From a virus, in IMG/VR virus record IMGVR_UViG_3300033388_001594, positions 1-20,685 of that record: a DNA stretch of 20,685 bases; one strand, 5' to 3'. The stretch's first letter is position 1. The number at the start of each line of letters is the position of its first letter. Made by a program: the position numbers and the translations under genes. Shown piece after piece: positions 2,535 through 12,178 of the stretch. The notes beneath the pieces were generated by a model. That model was not told the DNA's origin, did not search any database, and worked only from the letters and a program-made list of their open reading frames with translations.

Positions 2535-2825
2535 TTAAACGACCATGGTAGCGTACTTGTACACTCCCTTGGCTATTTCGTTGTTAACGTCGTTGATGAA
2601 TGCCTCGATACGATCTTTGAACAGTTCGTTAGCCTCTGGCGTGAACTCGTCCTTGACCATCTTGGTCATATTCCTTTCGAAGATCTCTATAAGCTGAGCG
2701 TCCAGCATTCCGAATGCTAGTACTAGCTTTTTCTCCTCGTACTGATTGTGCATGTCACACAACCCTCTTGATAAGAGATCTATGTTTATGGTTACTCGCC
2801 TTCCGGCTACTTCTAATACTTTCAT
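2535..2825 (-). CDS. Small protein, first gene after a promoter-like element (96 aa)
   Basis: Begins MKVLEVAGRRVTINIDLLSRGLC and continues as long helices (MHNQYEEKKLVLAFGMLDAQLIEIFERN; DEFTPEANELFKDRIEAFINDVNNEIAKG). The first 15 residues look like a strand hairpin. The ATG lies 2 bases after CTATATAG, the end of a 63-base element related to one at 6409-6471, so this gene is probably the first of a transcription unit reading leftward. No family is recognised and no membrane segment is present. Direct control by the upstream element makes it a candidate early effector; that is inference. Confidence 0.82.
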   Translation of the reverse strand: MKVLEVAGRRVTINIDLLSRGLCDMHNQYEEKKLVLAFGMLDAQLIEIFERNMTKMVKDEFTPEANELFKDRIEAFINDVNNEIAKGVYKYATMVV

Positions 2826-2827
2826 AA

Positions 2828-2911
2828 CTATATAGTTCTAATTAATAGATCTTATTAATAAATGCATCGAATTTCAATGCATCCGCATATACGTGAGCAA
2901 TGCGGATGCAT
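2828..2911 (-). promoter_or_regulatory. Candidate phage promoter/operator with 12-bp inverted repeat
   Basis: Read on the minus strand, positions 2890-2828 align without gaps to plus-strand 6409-6471 at 46 of 63 positions. The best conserved blocks are ATATGCGGAYGCAT, GATGCATWTAYTAATAAG and CTATATAG. Upstream, ATGCATCCGCAT (2877-2888) and ATGCGGATGCAT (2900-2911) form a perfect 12-bp inverted repeat with an 11-base spacer and no following T-run, so an operator is more likely than a terminator. The element directly abuts the start of the 96-residue gene. The promoter role is inferred from position and repetition. Confidence 0.6.
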
Positions 2912-4702: not shown

Positions 4703-4721
4703 TGTATTGATTGTTGATGAG

Positions 4722-4795
4722 TATTCCAGACAGGATTCGAACCTGCGACCTCTCACGTTTGTAGGCGAGTGCTCTTGCCACTGAGCTACTGGAAC
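4722..4795 (-). tRNA. tRNA gene with eight-base anticodon loop, identity uncertain
   Basis: Minus strand: acceptor GTTCCAG pairs with CTGGAAT (one G-U at 1-72), followed by discriminator A. The D arm is GCTC/GAGC with loop AGTGGCAA, and the variable region is AGGTC. The T arm is GCAGG/CCTGT (one G-U) with the classical TTCGAAT loop. The anticodon stem is CTCGC/GTGAG (one G-U) and its loop is CTACAAAC, eight bases instead of seven. If U33 is the second loop base, the anticodon is ACA (Cys codon UGU); A73 and the overall body look more like a Val-type tRNA. CCA is not encoded. It could be a frameshift-decoding tRNA or a decayed one. Confidence 0.8.
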
Positions 4796-4840: not shown

Positions 4841-4940
4841 TCTGCGTTGAGCTTATCGTCCACTACGCAGATACAGCGGACACTTTAGTGTACAGATCAT
4901 TGTGACCTGTGGCCTACTCACGTTTGTAGTGGTGAATAGG
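4841..4940 (-). ncRNA. Candidate structured RNA sharing the tRNA anticodon-arm sequence
   Basis: Minus strand, in order: CCTATTCAC/GTGAGTAGG (9 bp, one G-U; 4932-4940 with 4913-4921) closing the ten-base loop CACTACAAAC; ACAGGTC/GATCTGT (7 bp, one G-U; 4904-4910 with 4892-4898); TCTGCGT/ACGCAGA (4865-4871 with 4841-4847); then the 10-bp terminator at 4803-4833. CTACAAACGTGAG is identical to the tRNA anticodon region. This could be a small terminated RNA or the remains of a second tRNA. No expression evidence is available. Confidence 0.4.
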
Positions 4941-5301: not shown

Positions 5302-5766
5302 CTATTTTTTTGCCTGTGCTTTGTTCTGACGCTCCACTTTTGCGGCACGTGCGATATGTTGGTTGTGACCCTTTAGCACCTTGTTACAAATGAGCGTCAT
5401 TTGGCCCTCAGTGAATAACTGCAAGTCCTTGTACTTTGGACTCACTTCTATGGCCGCTTTCACGTTAGCGAATGTAAGGCACTTTAGCTCTTTAGCCGTC
5501 ATCGTTTCCTTGGCCGCCTTCAAGAAGTCCTTAAGCGCCTTATTTAGGCCCATAGAATCAACGCGCTTTACTTTAGCCGTCATCTGCAGGCGCTTGTATG
5601 CATTGGTGTTGTCCTTATCGAATGCTTGCACGGCTGCAAGGTCGCTCGCTGCTCGCTTGTTCATCTTCGCGGGTTGCTTTGCTCTGCGTTCTTTGTCCGC
5701 CTTCGTTAGCTTGTTAGCCTTCTTAGTTGCTTTGCCTTTCGGCGCTTGTTTTGTTACTACTGACAT
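5302..5766 (-). CDS. Lys/Ala-rich basic protein, unknown function (154 aa)
   Basis: The first 35 residues are a low-complexity basic tail (repeated Lys, Ala, Thr, Arg; e.g. KGKATKKANKLTKADKERR). The rest is helical, including AASDLAAVQAFDKDNTNAYKRLQ and KALKDFLKAAKETMTAKELKCL, ending in another basic helix (KVERQNKAQAKK). The tail recalls histone-like or other DNA/RNA-binding phage proteins; that is composition, not homology. It stands alone between two non-coding blocks with a long C/A-rich leader on its own strand (about 50 bases), suggesting its own promoter near 5818-5850. Good candidate for an early, abundant nucleic-acid-binding protein. Confidence 0.85.
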   Translation of the reverse strand: MSVVTKQAPKGKATKKANKLTKADKERRAKQPAKMNKRAASDLAAVQAFDKDNTNAYKRLQMTAKVKRVDSMGLNKALKDFLKAAKETMTAKELKCLTFANVKAAIEVSPKYKDLQLFTEGQMTLICNKVLKGHNQHIARAAKVERQNKAQAKK

Positions 5767-6352
5767 AATGTATGTGTGTTAGTGTGTGTATTGATGAATG
5801 TTTGTTTGTTGGTGTTGTATAGTGTAACGCTGATACTTCAATAAAAGTTACGAGAACGCAACAAATAACTTGTAACTAACTGAGGATCAATAGAATAAAA
5901 TTAGCGTAATTAGTTGGACATCTTAACATAATAGGCTTAATATAGTGTTAACCGTGTGTGTGTAGTATGCTAAGGTGATGCGAGCGCAATGCAGCCGCAA
6001 AGCGTTGGTATCACTGGGATTAAGGGGATTGGGTTATGTACTTCTTCCTACAGACGAGCGCCAAAACAACTCACAACCCCCCAAAACCACGACAAATAGG
6101 CCAAATAACGACAATAATCACCCCCTGTAACGTGTTGGCCCTCAATCAATTAGCCCCAAAAAGAGGTAAAGATAGTTACGCCCTCTCATAAGGTGCATTT
6201 GTCGCGGTTCGGTTTTCCCTCAGATAGGGGAGGGGCCGGATGTATATAATAGTACCCCCACATACACGAACACCCTGTAAACGCCCCCCTAGTAGTTTTT
6301 TCTCCCAGACAGGAAATAGGCATCCCTAACTTGTTGACTACCAATAAATTAA

Positions 6353-6377
6353 GGGGGAGGGGTATCTATATAGCAGG
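6353..6377 (+). promoter_or_regulatory. Short copy of the phage promoter-like element
   Basis: AAGGGGGAGGGG (6351-6362) is followed by TAT and CTATATAGCAG (6366-6376). The same CTATATAGCAG ends the longer element at 6464-6474, there preceded by AAGAGTAGAGTTAG. CAATAAAT a little upstream corresponds loosely to the CTAATAAG block of the longer copy. Probable partial third copy. Confidence 0.35.
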
Positions 6378-6408
6378 TACCTATATATGCGGACGAACAT
6401 GCGCTCGG

Positions 6409-6477
6409 ATATGCGGACGCATCCAATATCGATGCATATACTAATAAGAAAGAGTAGAGTTAGCTATATAGCAGTAT
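6409..6477 (+). promoter_or_regulatory. Candidate phage promoter/operator, plus-strand copy
   Basis: Ungapped match of 46/63 to the minus-strand element at 2890-2828, with the shared blocks ATATGCGGACGCAT, GATGCATATACTAATAAG and CTATATAG. The half-site ATATGCGGACG also occurs just upstream at 6385-6395. It is oriented toward the rightward genes at 6812 and beyond, as the other copy is oriented toward the leftward convoy, consistent with one factor firing both arms together. Confidence 0.55.
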
Positions 6478-6640: not shown

Positions 6641-6673
6641 TTTGTCAGGTATAAGGATAATTTACTATATTTG
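6641..6673 (+). promoter_or_regulatory. Bacteroidota-type promoter for the 6812 operon
   Basis: TTTG (6641-6644), a 21-base spacer and TATATTTG (6666-6673) match the Bacteroidota primary-sigma consensus (TTTG or TTG near -33, TAnnTTTG near -7). Transcription would begin near 6680, giving a leader of about 130 bases before the ATG at 6812. The -33 region reads TTTGTCAGGT, identical to bases at 8681-8690. Confidence 0.65.
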
Positions 6674-6811
6674 CTGTGCCCTTGGTGGGGAATGTACACC
6701 ATTGTCCTTGGCGCAGGATATAGGAGTTGTGGTTGGTCTGGTCTAATCGGACCGACTACTTCTCTAAGCGTCAGTCTTCATCGACATCTATTTACTAACT
6801 AATACATCATT

Positions 6812-8670: not shown

Positions 8671-8703
8671 TTGTTTTCCTTTTGTCAGGTTTTTGTATAT
8701 TTG
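8671..8703 (+). promoter_or_regulatory. Bacteroidota-type promoter for the 8729 gene
   Basis: TTG (8671-8673), a 22-base spacer and TATATTTG (8696-8703). TTTGTCAGGT (8681-8690), identical to the -33 region of the 6641 promoter, lies closer in and would give only an 11-base spacer. The predicted start near 8710 leaves a short A-rich leader before the ATG at 8729. Confidence 0.65.
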
Positions 8704-9138: not shown

Positions 9139-9167
9139 GAAGCGGTGTAGTGCCGCTTCTTTTTTTT
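9139..9167 (+). terminator. Strong intrinsic terminator
   Basis: GAAGCGG (9139-9145), loop TGTAGTG and CCGCTTC (9153-9159) form a perfect 7-bp GC-rich stem followed by eight T (9160-9167). It follows the 8729 gene by 8 bases and lies only 4 bases before the ATG of the HNH gene. Confidence 0.92.
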
Positions 9168-9171
9168 GGAT

Positions 9172-9516
9172 ATGAGCAAGAGAAAAAATGGATGGGGAAT
9201 CTACGGAGTAAAAGTAGAAGTAAACCCCAAGGTTTGTTATTACTGTAAGAATGAGATGGACGAGTTCAGCCGAACTGTTGACCACCTGATTCCGGAAAGT
9301 CGCGGCGGAATACGAGCGAACAAGAACAAGCTGTACTGCTGTGGAGACTGTAATAAGCTTAAAGGAGACATGACCCCAGAGGAGTTTGAGAGGGCGCTTA
9401 ACTCCATGATAAGACTCGAATCTAAAGGGCATAAAAGGAGAGCATCGTACCTAAAGAAAGTTCTGGGGAGCGTGAAAATACTCACTGAGCAGAAAAGGAA
9501 GGTCGATGGAAATTAA
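9172..9516 (+). CDS. HNH endonuclease
   Basis: 114 residues. A zinc-binding pair C22YYC25 matches C57GDC60. The nuclease core is V36-D37-H38 (RTVDHLIPESRGG), then N50 in GGIRANKNKLYCC, then N61 in CNKLKGDMTPEEFE; this is the classical HNH order with the 'CN.LKGd.tPeEf' ending. The ATG at 9172 is preferred to the in-frame TTG two codons upstream, which lies in the terminator. HNH proteins beside terminase genes assist DNA cleavage during packaging in several tailed phages (HK97-type systems), and the position here fits that role. A free-standing homing nuclease is the alternative. The basic C-terminus could bind DNA. Confidence 0.93.
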   Translation: MSKRKNGWGIYGVKVEVNPKVCYYCKNEMDEFSRTVDHLIPESRGGIRANKNKLYCCGDCNKLKGDMTPEEFERALNSMIRLESKGHKRRASYLKKVLGSVKILTEQKRKVDGN

Positions 9517-9543: not shown

Positions 9544-10101
9544 ATGGGAACGAAGAGAGTATATCACTTACTACACAACGAGCTGGCTAGGATTGACGAG
9601 AACATTCTCGAGATCGAAACCATCTACGTTGTTGACAAGCAGACTGGGGGCATGATCCCTATCGCTGAGGGGATTCCGGAAGACGCCGAGAAATTCATTC
9701 AAGACATCAAGAAGCGAAACACTAAAGGTCTCAGCTTCGCTATGATCTACCAAGAAACTCAGATGGAGCTCTGCAAGAAGCTCAGCGGAAATTCGTTTAG
9801 GATCCTGTGTATGATGCTGGGAAATATGAAATACGACAACAGCGCGTATGGTCTAACACATAGAAAGATAGCCGAGTTTCTGGGTATGTCTACTAGAACG
9901 GTCAACAGATCCATGAAGGAACTTGATAGATCAGGGTCTGTAGTCTCGACTGGGAGAAAAGGAAGTATAGTCTACCACATTAATCCGGCATACGCTTGGA
10001 AAGGTTCGTTCCACCGAATCAAGTATAAGCTGCCGATGTTCGATAAGGCAATGGAAGAGGATTTGCCGTTTACTTTTGGACGCGAAGACAACGAGGAATG
10101 A
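9544..10101 (+). CDS. RepL-like winged-helix protein in the small-terminase position
   Basis: 185 residues. Residues 104-130 (THRKIAEFLGMSTRTVNRSMKELDRSG) are a clear helix-turn-helix; the wing follows (VVSTGRKGSIVYHI), then INPAYAWKGSFHRIKYKL (about 146-163). The order 'iA...g.s..TVnR.mkeL...G.v.......Y.iNP..awKGs..r...l' is that of the RepL replication-protein family of plasmids and phages. The N-terminal 75 residues are family-divergent. It ends 1 base before the TerL start, where phages usually encode the small terminase. It could therefore recognise the packaging site, or initiate replication. No separate TerS is visible. Confidence 0.82.
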   Translation: MGTKRVYHLLHNELARIDENILEIETIYVVDKQTGGMIPIAEGIPEDAEKFIQDIKKRNTKGLSFAMIYQETQMELCKKLSGNSFRILCMMLGNMKYDNSAYGLTHRKIAEFLGMSTRTVNRSMKELDRSGSVVSTGRKGSIVYHINPAYAWKGSFHRIKYKLPMFDKAMEEDLPFTFGREDNEE

Positions 10102-10102
10102 C

Positions 10103-12178
10103 ATGAGCGACAATTCAGACTTACCATTTGACCTAAGCAAAGAGGTTATCCATATCGAGACCAAGGAATGGATGCCGTTTCATGCACCAACGGTGTACCC
10201 GAAATCTTTTGTAAGATGGGTAAACAGCATCAACAAGGGCTGGAAGAATCGGATCCAGTACAAGCCCTACGACATATACGTCAAGCAAGCCATGAACTGG
10301 CTGGCAGAGGACGACGACATCCTGAACTACAGGGATGAGGCTGATCAGGAAGATTACGTCATTCAGGAGTACCAGAGATGTCAGGACAACACCCTTTACT
10401 TCGCCAACAAGTATGGCTACCTCAAGGAAGGTGACGCCCAAGGAGGTAAGATCAAGTACACAGCTTGGGAACCACAGCAGATCCTGCTGTTCCTTCTGGA
10501 CAGCGGATACAACTGTATCATCGGTAAAGGTCGCCAGATTGGTTTCACTACCACGATGGGTCTGGCTGCGATGAAGAAGATTAACTTCAACAAGTCGTAC
10601 TTTGTTAAATTTATCACACATACCAAGGATAAGGGTGAAGAAATTTTCCGAGACAAGATTAGATGGGGTTTTGGTCAGATAGAAGATTGGTTGAGGCTTC
10701 CGGCATACAATGATGCTCACAACGTCCTGTCTCTTCAAGAAAAAGCTAAGAAGGGTGAGACTAAAGGATCTTACTCTAGAATCGAGGTTTCGACTCCAGC
10801 TGTAGATGCCATTAACGGTGGATCCCCTAACCTTGTTCTTATCGATGAAATTGGCCTATTGGAGCTTTTCGGAAAAATGGTTCGTGAAGGTCGTCCAACA
10901 CTATTCTTCTTCAACCCAGAAACCAAGCAAATGGAGATGAGACGCCAATTGTTCTGCTGGGGAACTGGTGGAGAAATGGGGAAGGGTGGCGCTATATTCG
11001 AGGCGGAGTTCAAGTCAGCTCTCAAGAACTGGAAAGAAGGCAATCACGCGCATGGAATCATTCCATTGTTCTTTGATGCCTATGCAAGGCAGGGTATGAC
11101 GGACGAGAGGTACAGATCAGAGAAGAAGCTGTACTACGGTGTAACTGGAGTTGACGCAGCCTCATCCAAGGTTCAGTTCCACCAGCACTACCCAATAACC
11201 CTTGAGGACATGTTCCTCAGAACTGCTTTGACCATAATCCCTGTGGATGAATGCAACAAGTACCTCTCGAAGATTTACAACATGAACCCAGTCGATCAGC
11301 CTCAGTATGGATACTTTGAGCCGATATACGACCAGACATCACCCACTCCAGATGGAGCTCTTCCATTCAAGCTTGTCGGAAGTAGATTCATTCCTACGGA
11401 AGGTCGGGGCGACGAGAGAACATCCTCCGTGGTGTTCAAGCATCCTCCTCAGGGGGAGAATTGGGAATATCGATGGTACCAAGGAACGGATCCAATTAAC
11501 TCTGAGACTGGACACTCAAAGATGTCCTCCTCAATTTGGGATGCTCTGAACAATACATGCGCCTCGATGGTGTTCTGGAGAGTAAGGGCATACAAGGAGT
11601 GTTACCTCCAGTGCCTCCTACAAGGTCTCTACTTTGATCAGGTCGGAGGCGGAGCTAAAGAACTAGTGGAGAGCAATATAGGTGATTCGTATGTCGACTT
11701 CCAAGACATGGTTGGGTACAGTAGAAGATTGGTGGCCAACAGAGCTCTACCTACCCACATGCAAACCCCGTCCAGCAAGTTTTGGGGGATAGCCAACAAG
11801 GCGAACACCGCCGGCTACATCGCCGGTAAGATCATTGAGATGATTGACGCATACGCACCCAATATCTATATCGAGTGGTTCTTCGAGCAAATAAAGACCT
11901 TCGTCGAAAAGGATCTGGCCGGTAGGTCGTCTCATCGTGAGACAAGATTTCAAGCTGCAGATTTGAAGACAAATTATGATGACGGTATCTTCTCAATGGT
12001 TTTTGCGTATATAAACGCTCAGGCACATTCTAAGTACGAGCCTAGGCTTATAGACAGTGCAGAGGAGAGCGTCAGACAGAGGAGGTATGTTCAGAATGCC
12101 GACACTAACTGGAAAATGAGACTAGCTCTTGTCGATGAGAACGGAAAGGTAATACGGTACCTTGGGAGCGGTAGGTAG
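10103..12178 (+). CDS. terL: Large terminase (packaging ATPase-nuclease)
   Basis: 691 residues from the ATG at 10103 (the frame is open upstream, but that part overlaps the previous gene). The Walker A variant is GKGRQIGFTT (141-150), Walker B is LVLIDE (244-249) with catalytic Glu249, and a coupling-type segment CWGTGG lies at 285-290. The C-terminal nuclease carries GTDPI (461-465, Asp463), LYFDQVGGGAKELVE (509-523), and AADLKTNYDDGIFS (618-631) with the metal-binding Asp pair. This enzyme pumps DNA into the prohead through the portal and cuts concatemers. The length is in the large range for TerL, with a long N-terminal extension of about 100 residues before the ATPase. All catalytic residues are present. 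Confidence 0.96.
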   Translation: MSDNSDLPFDLSKEVIHIETKEWMPFHAPTVYPKSFVRWVNSINKGWKNRIQYKPYDIYVKQAMNWLAEDDDILNYRDEADQEDYVIQEYQRCQDNTLYFANKYGYLKEGDAQGGKIKYTAWEPQQILLFLLDSGYNCIIGKGRQIGFTTTMGLAAMKKINFNKSYFVKFITHTKDKGEEIFRDKIRWGFGQIEDWLRLPAYNDAHNVLSLQEKAKKGETKGSYSRIEVSTPAVDAINGGSPNLVLIDEIGLLELFGKMVREGRPTLFFFNPETKQMEMRRQLFCWGTGGEMGKGGAIFEAEFKSALKNWKEGNHAHGIIPLFFDAYARQGMTDERYRSEKKLYYGVTGVDAASSKVQFHQHYPITLEDMFLRTALTIIPVDECNKYLSKIYNMNPVDQPQYGYFEPIYDQTSPTPDGALPFKLVGSRFIPTEGRGDERTSSVVFKHPPQGENWEYRWYQGTDPINSETGHSKMSSSIWDALNNTCASMVFWRVRAYKECYLQCLLQGLYFDQVGGGAKELVESNIGDSYVDFQDMVGYSRRLVANRALPTHMQTPSSKFWGIANKANTAGYIAGKIIEMIDAYAPNIYIEWFFEQIKTFVEKDLAGRSSHRETRFQAADLKTNYDDGIFSMVFAYINAQAHSKYEPRLIDSAEESVRQRRYVQNADTNWKMRLALVDENGKVIRYLGSGR

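What the first reader, a model, noticed from the sequence alone, without database searches (positions are those of the whole stretch)
2828..2911. Two related 63-base elements on opposite strands, aimed at both gene arms
Minus-strand 2890-2828 and plus-strand 6409-6471 align without a gap at 46/63 positions. Three conserved islands stand out: ATATGCGGAYGCAT, GATGCATWTAYTAATAAG and the palindrome CTATATAG. One copy points at the leftward small-gene convoy, the other at the rightward operon. Paired, oppositely facing, non-host-consensus elements are what a phage-encoded or phage-modified transcription system would use, and the pattern does not match the TAnnTTTG boxes used elsewhere in the window.
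Basis: seen in the sequence. Interest (0 to 1): 0.72.

Follow-up and report, generated by a model that had tools for sequence, protein, structure and literature searches.

The report
Palindrome arrays in a phage control region
The two matching stretches are copies of a phage-specific cluster of short palindromic sites, probably bound by a protein, that normally lies beside a conserved core in the control region of an uncultured phage family, and is more likely part of a replication origin than a pair of phage promoters.

Summary
Copies A (2828-2890, minus) and B (6409-6471, plus) match at 46 of 63 positions; the next places score 32 and 31, and 12 shuffles reached at most 40. The unit is a near-palindrome, ATGCGGAYGCAT, in clusters (mostly 22-24 nt steps) followed, in window, L005 and L008, by TAATAAG and a TATATA element. 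B is the ancestral copy: three relatives with 62-70% identical terminase carry the same sites, at similar distance from a roughly 110-bp core aligned in 35 distinct sequences. A is an extra copy inside the left arm, without the core. Some distant members have arrays of other palindromes beside the core. In one pair (L151/L153) only the array differs: it is unrelated, while the flanks are 88% and 96-97% identical.

Phage-promoter reading: a host-type promoter lies 170 bp beyond B, and 12 chosen long relatives gave no RNA polymerase or sigma match. Most likely reading: iteron-like sites of a replication origin (about 0.45). A packaging site or operators remain possible.

The parts
2828..2911 (-). 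Copy A: ectopic array inside the left arm, directly upstream of the minus-strand gene 2535-2825; no core beside it
2900..2911 (+). Palindromic site ATGCGGATGCAT of copy A, inverted relative to the next site
2877..2888 (-). Palindromic site ATGCGGATGCAT of copy A; with 2900-2911 it forms a 12-bp inverted repeat with an 11-nt loop (DNA fold -13 kcal/mol, z -3.8)
2851..2868 (-). Tail element GATGCATTTATTAATAAG of copy A
2828..2835 (.). CTATATAG palindrome, 2 nt before the ATG of gene 2535-2825
2535..2825 (-). 96-aa reading frame directly behind copy A, no PHROG match
6387..6471 (+). Copy B: array plus tail in the divergent noncoding region; ancestral copy by comparison with relatives
6387..6398 (+). 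Degenerate first site ATGCGGACGAAC of copy B
6411..6422 (+). Second site ATGCGGACGCAT of copy B, 24 nt after the first
6431..6448 (+). Tail element GATGCATATACTAATAAG; TAATAAGAAAGA starts +273 from the core anchor, +277 in L005, +269 in L008
6464..6471 (.). CTATATAG palindrome of copy B
6354..6373 (+). Second G-rich block with a CTATATAG palindrome; several distant members show a G-rich block followed by TAGTACTA
6169..6270 (+). Conserved core: AAGATAGTTA, TTTTCC, GGGGAGGGG (+58), TATA..ACCCCC, ACATACAC; aligned with few gaps in 35 distinct sequences
6641..6673 (+). Host-type (Bacteroidota) promoter TTTG-N21-TATATTTG ahead of the rightward operon
   Evidence: consensus recalled
5302..5766 (-). 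First gene of the leftward arm, basic 154-aa protein
9166..9516 (+). HNH nuclease gene, syntenic in relatives
9544..10101 (+). Winged-helix protein of Pfam RepL, between HNH and terminase
10076..12178 (+). Large terminase reading frame used to find relatives (start codon as listed, TTG)

Best explanation
The element is a cluster of near-palindromic 12-14 bp sites (TATGCG-GA-CGCATA) bound, presumably as dimers, by a sequence-specific DNA-binding protein. With its AT-rich tail it forms the array part of a roughly 300-bp control region between the two gene arms. I think the region is the phage's replication origin. The array acts like iterons: binding at regular spacing would help open the DNA at the core and AT-rich tail and load the phage's DnaB-type helicase. 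Copy A is a duplicated array without the core, inside the left arm; it would act as an extra binding site that titrates or regulates, or as an operator for the gene directly behind it. Shown by sequence: anatomy, spacing, near-constant position beside the core, presence in relatives, exchange of an array in one pair of close relatives, extra copy A. Inferred: that a protein binds, which protein, that the window's phage has a helicase of that kind, and that the process is replication.
For: The same site recurs in L005, L008 and L013 beside the same core; in L013 four sites (the last degenerate) and then three sites step by exactly 22 nt on the two sides of the core, between the two arms. Distances from the core anchor are near-constant: G block +58, +58, +59, +58 in window, L005, L008, L013; tail +273, +277, +269 in window, L005, L008. 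The core is conserved as DNA: 35 distinct sequences, and no compensatory pair change in an RNA fold of 21 of them. AT-rich DNA adjoins the arrays: A tail 83%, B tail 71%, L013 82%, against 56-59% overall. Seven of 12 chosen long relatives match the DnaB helicase family. A RepL-like winged-helix gene matches in 20 of 22 records and lies between HNH and terminase where both are seen; Pfam RepL 37.9 bits against a cut-off of 20.3. Precedents, read as passages: in V. cholerae PLE satellites the iterons of an intergenic origin (three semi-palindromic repeats of about 30 bp) differ between lineages as exchanged modules (PMC8263062); lambda O binds iterons that are 19-bp imperfect inverted repeats beside an AT-rich tract (PMC7466680).
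Against: No experiment or replication profile exists. The obvious initiator candidate, the RepL-like winged-helix protein, does not follow the array: L151 and L153 share it at 99% and the core at 97%, but their arrays are no more alike than shuffled ones (58%; 69 of 200 shuffles reach this); L118/L125 also share it at 99% with unrelated DNA left of the core. L013 has the clearest array but no such gene in its 13.6 kb, though the record is partial. The conserved core is rich in G and C tracts, not a typical unwinding element. In most loci no array of identical arm pairs was detected: 15 of 154 loci (11 distinct contigs) had three or more copies, and the window, L005, L008 and L016 themselves are not flagged by that scan. 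In the window B is weak: two sites, one degenerate. DnaB was not found in 5 of 12 long records, nor DNA polymerase A in any. No protein was shown to bind.
Confidence: 0.45

Rival explanations
1. Packaging (cos-like) region. The core with GGGGA...TATAAGACCCC is the cleavage site, and the palindrome arrays are binding sites for the terminase-recruiting protein, in an operon HNH - winged helix - large terminase.
For: An HNH gene lies upstream of the terminase in more than 40 loci. In the window a 185-aa winged-helix frame overlaps the listed start of the terminase frame. The core has G and C tracts as a hyphenated dyad. Contig ends are enriched here: 28 of 72 HNH contigs end within 1.5 kb upstream of HNH; of 14 contigs of 50 kb or more, two (65,680 and 63,929 bases) end 1157 and 235 bases upstream of HNH, in the noncoding region, and a third ends 1277 bases upstream.
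Against: The contig ends are scattered over hundreds of bases with no common coordinate and their rate falls gradually (0.26, 0.20, 0.15, 0.11, 0.08 per kb at risk with distance), as expected from assembly breaks in variable DNA. Two 65-kb records overlap themselves by 127 bases at ends away from this region. In distant members a metallophosphatase-like gene and small genes separate the winged-helix gene from the terminase, and L013 lacks the winged-helix gene. In the model the winged helix follows helices of low confidence, unlike classical small terminases (recalled). An extra array A inside the genome is awkward for packaging, although A has no core.
Confidence: 0.2
2. Operators or promoters of a phage transcription regulator: the arrays are binding sites of an activator or repressor that times left- and right-arm expression.
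For: Copy A carries array, tail and CTATATAG and ends 2 nt before an ATG. B lies between two divergent arms. The module (array plus tail) was duplicated without the core, as an independent regulatory part might be.
Against: A complete host-type promoter lies 170 bp beyond B, and similar ones beyond the arrays of L005 and L008, far for a direct operator. No RNA polymerase or sigma factor was found in 12 chosen long relatives. The array keeps a near-constant distance from a core. Copy A was seen only in this phage type.
Confidence: 0.2
3. Palindrome cassettes without a phage function of their own (REP-like or otherwise mobile short repeats) that accumulate beside the core.
For: Different palindromes occupy the same place in relatives, two kinds occur side by side in L050, and an array was exchanged cleanly in L151/L153. 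One copy (A) has moved.
Against: Position beside the core is kept over 62-70% terminase identity. The tail after the array is conserved in window, L005 and L008. The unit is not a host repeat (3 of 296 genomes; reversed control 6 of 296).
Confidence: 0.1

Closest known systems
Phage lambda origin (O-protein iterons plus AT-rich tract)
   Same: Repeated imperfect inverted repeats with AT-rich DNA beside them (lambda: passages of PMC7466680)
   Different: Noncoding region instead of inside the initiator gene; a separate core with G and C tracts; the nearby winged-helix protein does not vary with the sites; no binding shown
V. cholerae PLE satellite origins (RepA_N iterons, modular)
   Same: Semi-palindromic repeats in an intergenic region, different versions in relatives (passages of PMC8263062)
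   Different: In PLE the DNA-binding domain of RepA covaries with the origin; here the neighbouring winged-helix protein stays 99% identical in two pairs whose left-side DNA is unrelated
RepL family (Pfam PF05732) replication proteins, also sought in crAss-like phages (passage of PMC11652158)
   Same: The winged-helix gene 9544-10101 scores above the Pfam cut-off
   Different: Role untested; 7 of 13 aligned members match at E 0.001
cos regions with HNH - small terminase - large terminase (arrangement recalled)
   Same: HNH and winged-helix genes next to the large terminase, conserved DNA core upstream
   Different: No fixed genome end detected; gene order interrupted in distant members
N4 or T7 type phage promoters (recalled)
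   Same: Phage elements, repeated and oriented; copy A can form a hairpin
   Different: No phage RNA polymerase found in 12 chosen relatives; copy B forms no such hairpin

Membership tests
Iteron-type replication origin | Several tandem, regularly spaced copies of one binding site | tested here: met
   Met in L013: 4+3 sites at 22 nt (fourth degenerate). In the window weaker: B two sites at 24 nt, one degenerate; A two sites 23 nt apart but inverted. L005 and L008 also have 12-nt steps
Iteron-type replication origin | AT-rich unwinding region next to the sites | tested here: inconclusive
   A tail 83%, B tail 71%, L013 82% AT against 56-59%; the conserved core itself is not AT-rich
Iteron-type replication origin | Cognate initiator whose DNA-binding part matches the sites | tested here: inconclusive
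   Not met for the RepL-like candidate: 99% identical in L151/L153 and L118/L125 with unrelated DNA at the array place. Another initiator was not identified and is not excluded
Iteron-type replication origin | Drives autonomous replication | not testable with these tools
   needs an experiment
RepL (PF05732), protein 9544-10101 | Score above the Pfam gathering cut-off | tested here: met
   37.9 bits against 20.3; 7 of 13 aligned members match at E 0.001
cos packaging site | Defined genome ends at one coordinate | tested here: not met
   28 of 72 contigs end within 1.5 kb but at scattered positions; contig ends are weak evidence
cos packaging site | HNH, small and large terminase genes adjacent | tested here: inconclusive
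   HNH and winged helix next to the terminase in the window; other genes between in distant members; winged helix absent in L013
Phage-RNA-polymerase promoters (T7, N4) | Genome encodes an RNA polymerase or sigma factor | tested here: not met
   0 of 12 long relatives for PF00940, PF04998, PF04542; T7 control positive; tested in relatives only, the window's genome is a fragment
Phage-RNA-polymerase promoters (T7, N4) | Hairpin shared by the copies (N4 type) | tested here: not met
   A z -3.8, B z -0.04
Bacteroidota promoter (TTTG / TAnnTTTG, recalled) | TAnnTTTG box in the element | tested here: not met
   none in A or B; present at 6641-6673

The most novel reading that the evidence does not exclude
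A phage family keeps one roughly 110-bp control core for its origin but swaps the address arrays beside it: palindrome arrays of unrelated sequence are exchanged between genomes that are otherwise about 93% identical, without change in the neighbouring RepL-like and HNH proteins. Such turnover would mean either a reader encoded elsewhere that travels with the array, or arrays that change to escape an origin-targeting enemy (a satellite, or a nuclease of the kind that ICP1 aims at PLE origins). Copy A would be an array caught outside the origin.
Probability: 0.25. Interest if true: 0.65.

Novelty: new variant of a known kind. Interest (0 to 1): 0.45.

Why it matters
It points to a conserved control region, probably an origin, in an uncultured phage family of likely Bacteroidota hosts. 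In the annotated phage collection its terminase has only distant matches (none covers 80% of it; the best listed covers 41% at 23% identity), and its portal and capsid candidates have no match at E 1e-5. It also gives a natural experiment: a constant core beside an exchanged array (L151/L153). If the arrays are origin addresses, such pairs would let one ask directly what drives turnover of origin sites in phages. It also corrects a plausible but weak promoter reading.

Tried and rejected
Phage-polymerase promoters: lowered, because no polymerase or sigma match was found in 12 relatives and a host-type promoter is present. Hairpin promoter: only copy A folds. Structured RNA core: no covariation in 21 sequences; the only Rfam match in the window at gathering threshold is a tRNA. 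RepL-like winged helix as reader of the array: proposed first, then disfavoured. Of the pairs, L123/L140 is not a clean case: its left 120 nt are more alike than all 200 shuffles, so I do not count it. Fold search of the winged-helix model (mean pLDDT 69.9) gave only generic MarR/ArsR-type matches in PDB, none at E 0.001 or better, and winged-helix, RepL and replisome names among viral models; profile search of PDB gave MarR 0.004 and TubR 0.006. Left-arm genes that follow array type: of 33 records, the 40 largest families were printed; two families occurred only in L077 and L117, close relatives that share an array, and no other family followed array type. The first left-arm gene is exchanged too (unrelated in L118/L034, L067/L077 and L119/L141), but L119/L141 have left 120 nt 93% identical, so it does not simply follow the array. 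Left arms are often cut off. Host repeat: 3 of 296 genomes, reversed control 6 of 296. Core DNA of one member (L127) in annotated phages or plasmids: no match. A pattern for the core found 9 stretches in viral contigs, none followed up as a satellite or plasmid. Host scan with the winged-helix alignment found nothing. The first palindrome-cluster scan with 6-nt arms found only one phage and was replaced by 5-nt arms. The lag scan for tandem periods ranked the array first in L013 and L016, but other places first in the rest. A count of perfect palindromes per 150 nt picked the region in only some records. Six paper searches listed no description of this array or family, but their terms were general; of papers I saw the search listings and, as found passages only, PMC8263062, PMC7466680 and PMC11652158.

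Selections and dropped rows: contig ends use 72 of the 80 loci; left out were L104 and L105 (the window's phage), L166 (a record that repeats L167 around the array) and the five weakest matches L171-L175. The core comparison used 57 loci that I chose; 44 had the anchor AA[AG]ATAGTT within 3.5 kb and 13 did not (L014, L016, L020, L022, L156, L157, L159, L163, L164, L165, L167, L168, L169; some are cut short, L014, L016 and L020 show a variant core by eye). 41 went into the alignment and 35 remained after a 90% identity filter. The 12 'long relatives' are chosen records of 60-129 kb without completeness estimates; two of them (L016, L167) look like the same phage.

Full report
Observation. A (2828-2890, minus) and B (6409-6471, plus) match at 46 of 63 positions without a gap, the best such pair in the window; the second pair (43) lies within the portal gene, and 12 dinucleotide shuffles reached 36-40. 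Against the whole window the partner scores 46 and the next place 32 or 31. The islands are as described, although CTATATAG has a third copy at 6366. The window's record is 20,685 bases.

Anatomy. Island 1 is a near-palindrome, TATGCG-GA-CGCATA. B has two sites, 6387-6398 (degenerate) and 6411-6422, 24 nt apart. A has two sites, 2877-2888 on the minus strand and 2900-2911 on the plus strand, 23 nt apart and inverted, so that A alone can form a 12-bp hairpin. Both continue into GATGCATWTAYTAATAAG and CTATATAG. CTATATAG of A ends 2 nt before the ATG of a 96-aa frame without a PHROG match.

Relatives. The terminase search kept the best 80 of 190 relatives in IMG/VR; two of them are 99.9% identical to the window. 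TATGCGGAYGCAT occurs exactly in L005, L008 and L013, terminase identity 70, 69 and 62%. In L013 four sites (the last degenerate) and then three sites step by exactly 22 nt on the two sides of the core. L005 and L008 also contain 12-nt steps. L016 has a degenerate ATGC/GCAT array, and L014 a weak one, at the same place. In window, L013, L014 and L016 the place is the noncoding region between the leftward arm and the rightward arm with HNH and terminase; in L005 and L008 the contig starts inside that region, so only the right side is seen. Copy A was seen only in the window's phage type, in both records that cover the place.

Core. Near the arrays lies a conserved DNA core, roughly AAGATAGTTA-N(32)-GTTTTCC-N(8)-GGGGAGGGGATA-N(10)-GTATAAGACCC-N(6)-ACAGATAC. 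I examined 57 chosen loci; 44 had the anchor. 41 were aligned and 35 stayed after a 90% identity filter. An RNA fold of 21 sequences gave 4 pairs and no compensatory change, so it seems conserved as DNA. The G block lies at +58, +58, +59 and +58 from the anchor in window, L005, L008 and L013, and the tail at +273, +277 and +269 in window, L005 and L008. The core of L127 has no match in the phage and plasmid collections.

Array turnover. Some distant members carry other palindromes beside the core: CTATGTATGCATAG in L151, TATGCACGCATA in L050 and L020, TTAGTGT...ACACTAA types in L067, L052 and L125. With 5-nt arms, 15 of 154 loci (11 distinct contigs) had three or more copies of one arm pair within 200 nt, against 0, 0, 0, 1 and 1 of 154 in five shuffles. 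In 8 of the 11 contigs the cluster starts within about 160 nt of the anchor; in L077, L078 and L117 it is about 1.1 kb away. The window, L005, L008 and L016 are not flagged by this strict scan. L151 and L153 are 93.1% identical over 1.75 kb, with winged helix 99%, HNH 98% and core 97% identical. Their left flanks are 88% identical and the 490 bases after the core 96%, but the 106-125 nt array between flank and core is 58% alike, which 69 of 200 shuffles reach. L118/L125 share the winged helix at 99% and have unrelated DNA left of the core throughout; L123/L140 are partly related there and are not counted. The winged-helix and HNH proteins are therefore unlikely to be what reads the array.

Transcription. 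Ahead of the rightward operon lies TTTG-N21-TATATTTG at 6641-6673; L005 and L008 have TTTG-N19-TATGTTTG at the corresponding place (read). The Bacteroidota consensus is recalled. A terminase relative at 37% identity lies in a MAG named Bacteroidetes bacterium UBA4408, which suggests but does not prove the host phylum. In 12 chosen long relatives: T7-like RNA polymerase 0 of 12 (T7 itself positive), RNA polymerase beta-prime 0 of 12, sigma-70 region 2 0 of 12, DNA polymerase A 0 of 12, DnaB helicase 7 of 12, RepL 7 of 12 of which 5 pass the cut-off.

Packaging. HNH next to the terminase suggests cos packaging (recalled association). 28 of 72 HNH contigs end within 1.5 kb upstream of HNH; the rate of ends falls from 0.26 per kb at risk there to 0.20, 0.15, 0.11 and 0.08 further upstream, and is 0.10-0.12 at 3-9 kb downstream. 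The ends are at scattered positions. Two 65-kb records overlap themselves by 127 bases and hold this region inside. This leaves cos possible but unproven.

Conclusion. It is best seen as an exchangeable array of palindromic binding sites tied to a conserved core between the two arms, with an extra copy in the left arm. A replication origin is the likeliest function; packaging and regulation remain open. Which protein reads the array is unknown.

Noticed in passing
4721-4795 (-): tRNA gene for which ARAGORN reads a four-base anticodon (acaa), i.e. an enlarged anticodon loop; Rfam tRNA 58 bits. Part of its anticodon arm (TCACGTTTGTAG) recurs near 4918 (seen by eye).
   Followed up: no
L151 141-265 and L153 271-376: Clean exchange of a palindrome array between two otherwise about 93% identical genomes.
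   Followed up: partly
L067 5110-5340; L034/L125 2150-2265; L052 3575-3690: Arrays of TTAGTGT...ACACTAA type palindromes beside the core, unrelated to the window's unit.
   Followed up: partly
L118, L034, L067, L077, L119, L141: first leftward gene: The gene at the left border of the noncoding region belongs to unrelated families in close relatives.
   Followed up: partly
8671-8703 (+): A second plus-strand TTG-N-TATATTTG promoter-like site inside the rightward arm.
   Followed up: no
6673-6800: Noncoding leader after the host-type promoter with a stretch similar by eye in L005 and L008 (GTGCCC..GG..GGGAATGTA.ACCA), possibly a regulatory leader.
   Followed up: no
L059 8620-9504, L075 8498-9376 and others: Metallophosphatase-like gene between winged helix and terminase in distant members; L067 carries an intein-like insertion in it (judged by eye).
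   Followed up: no
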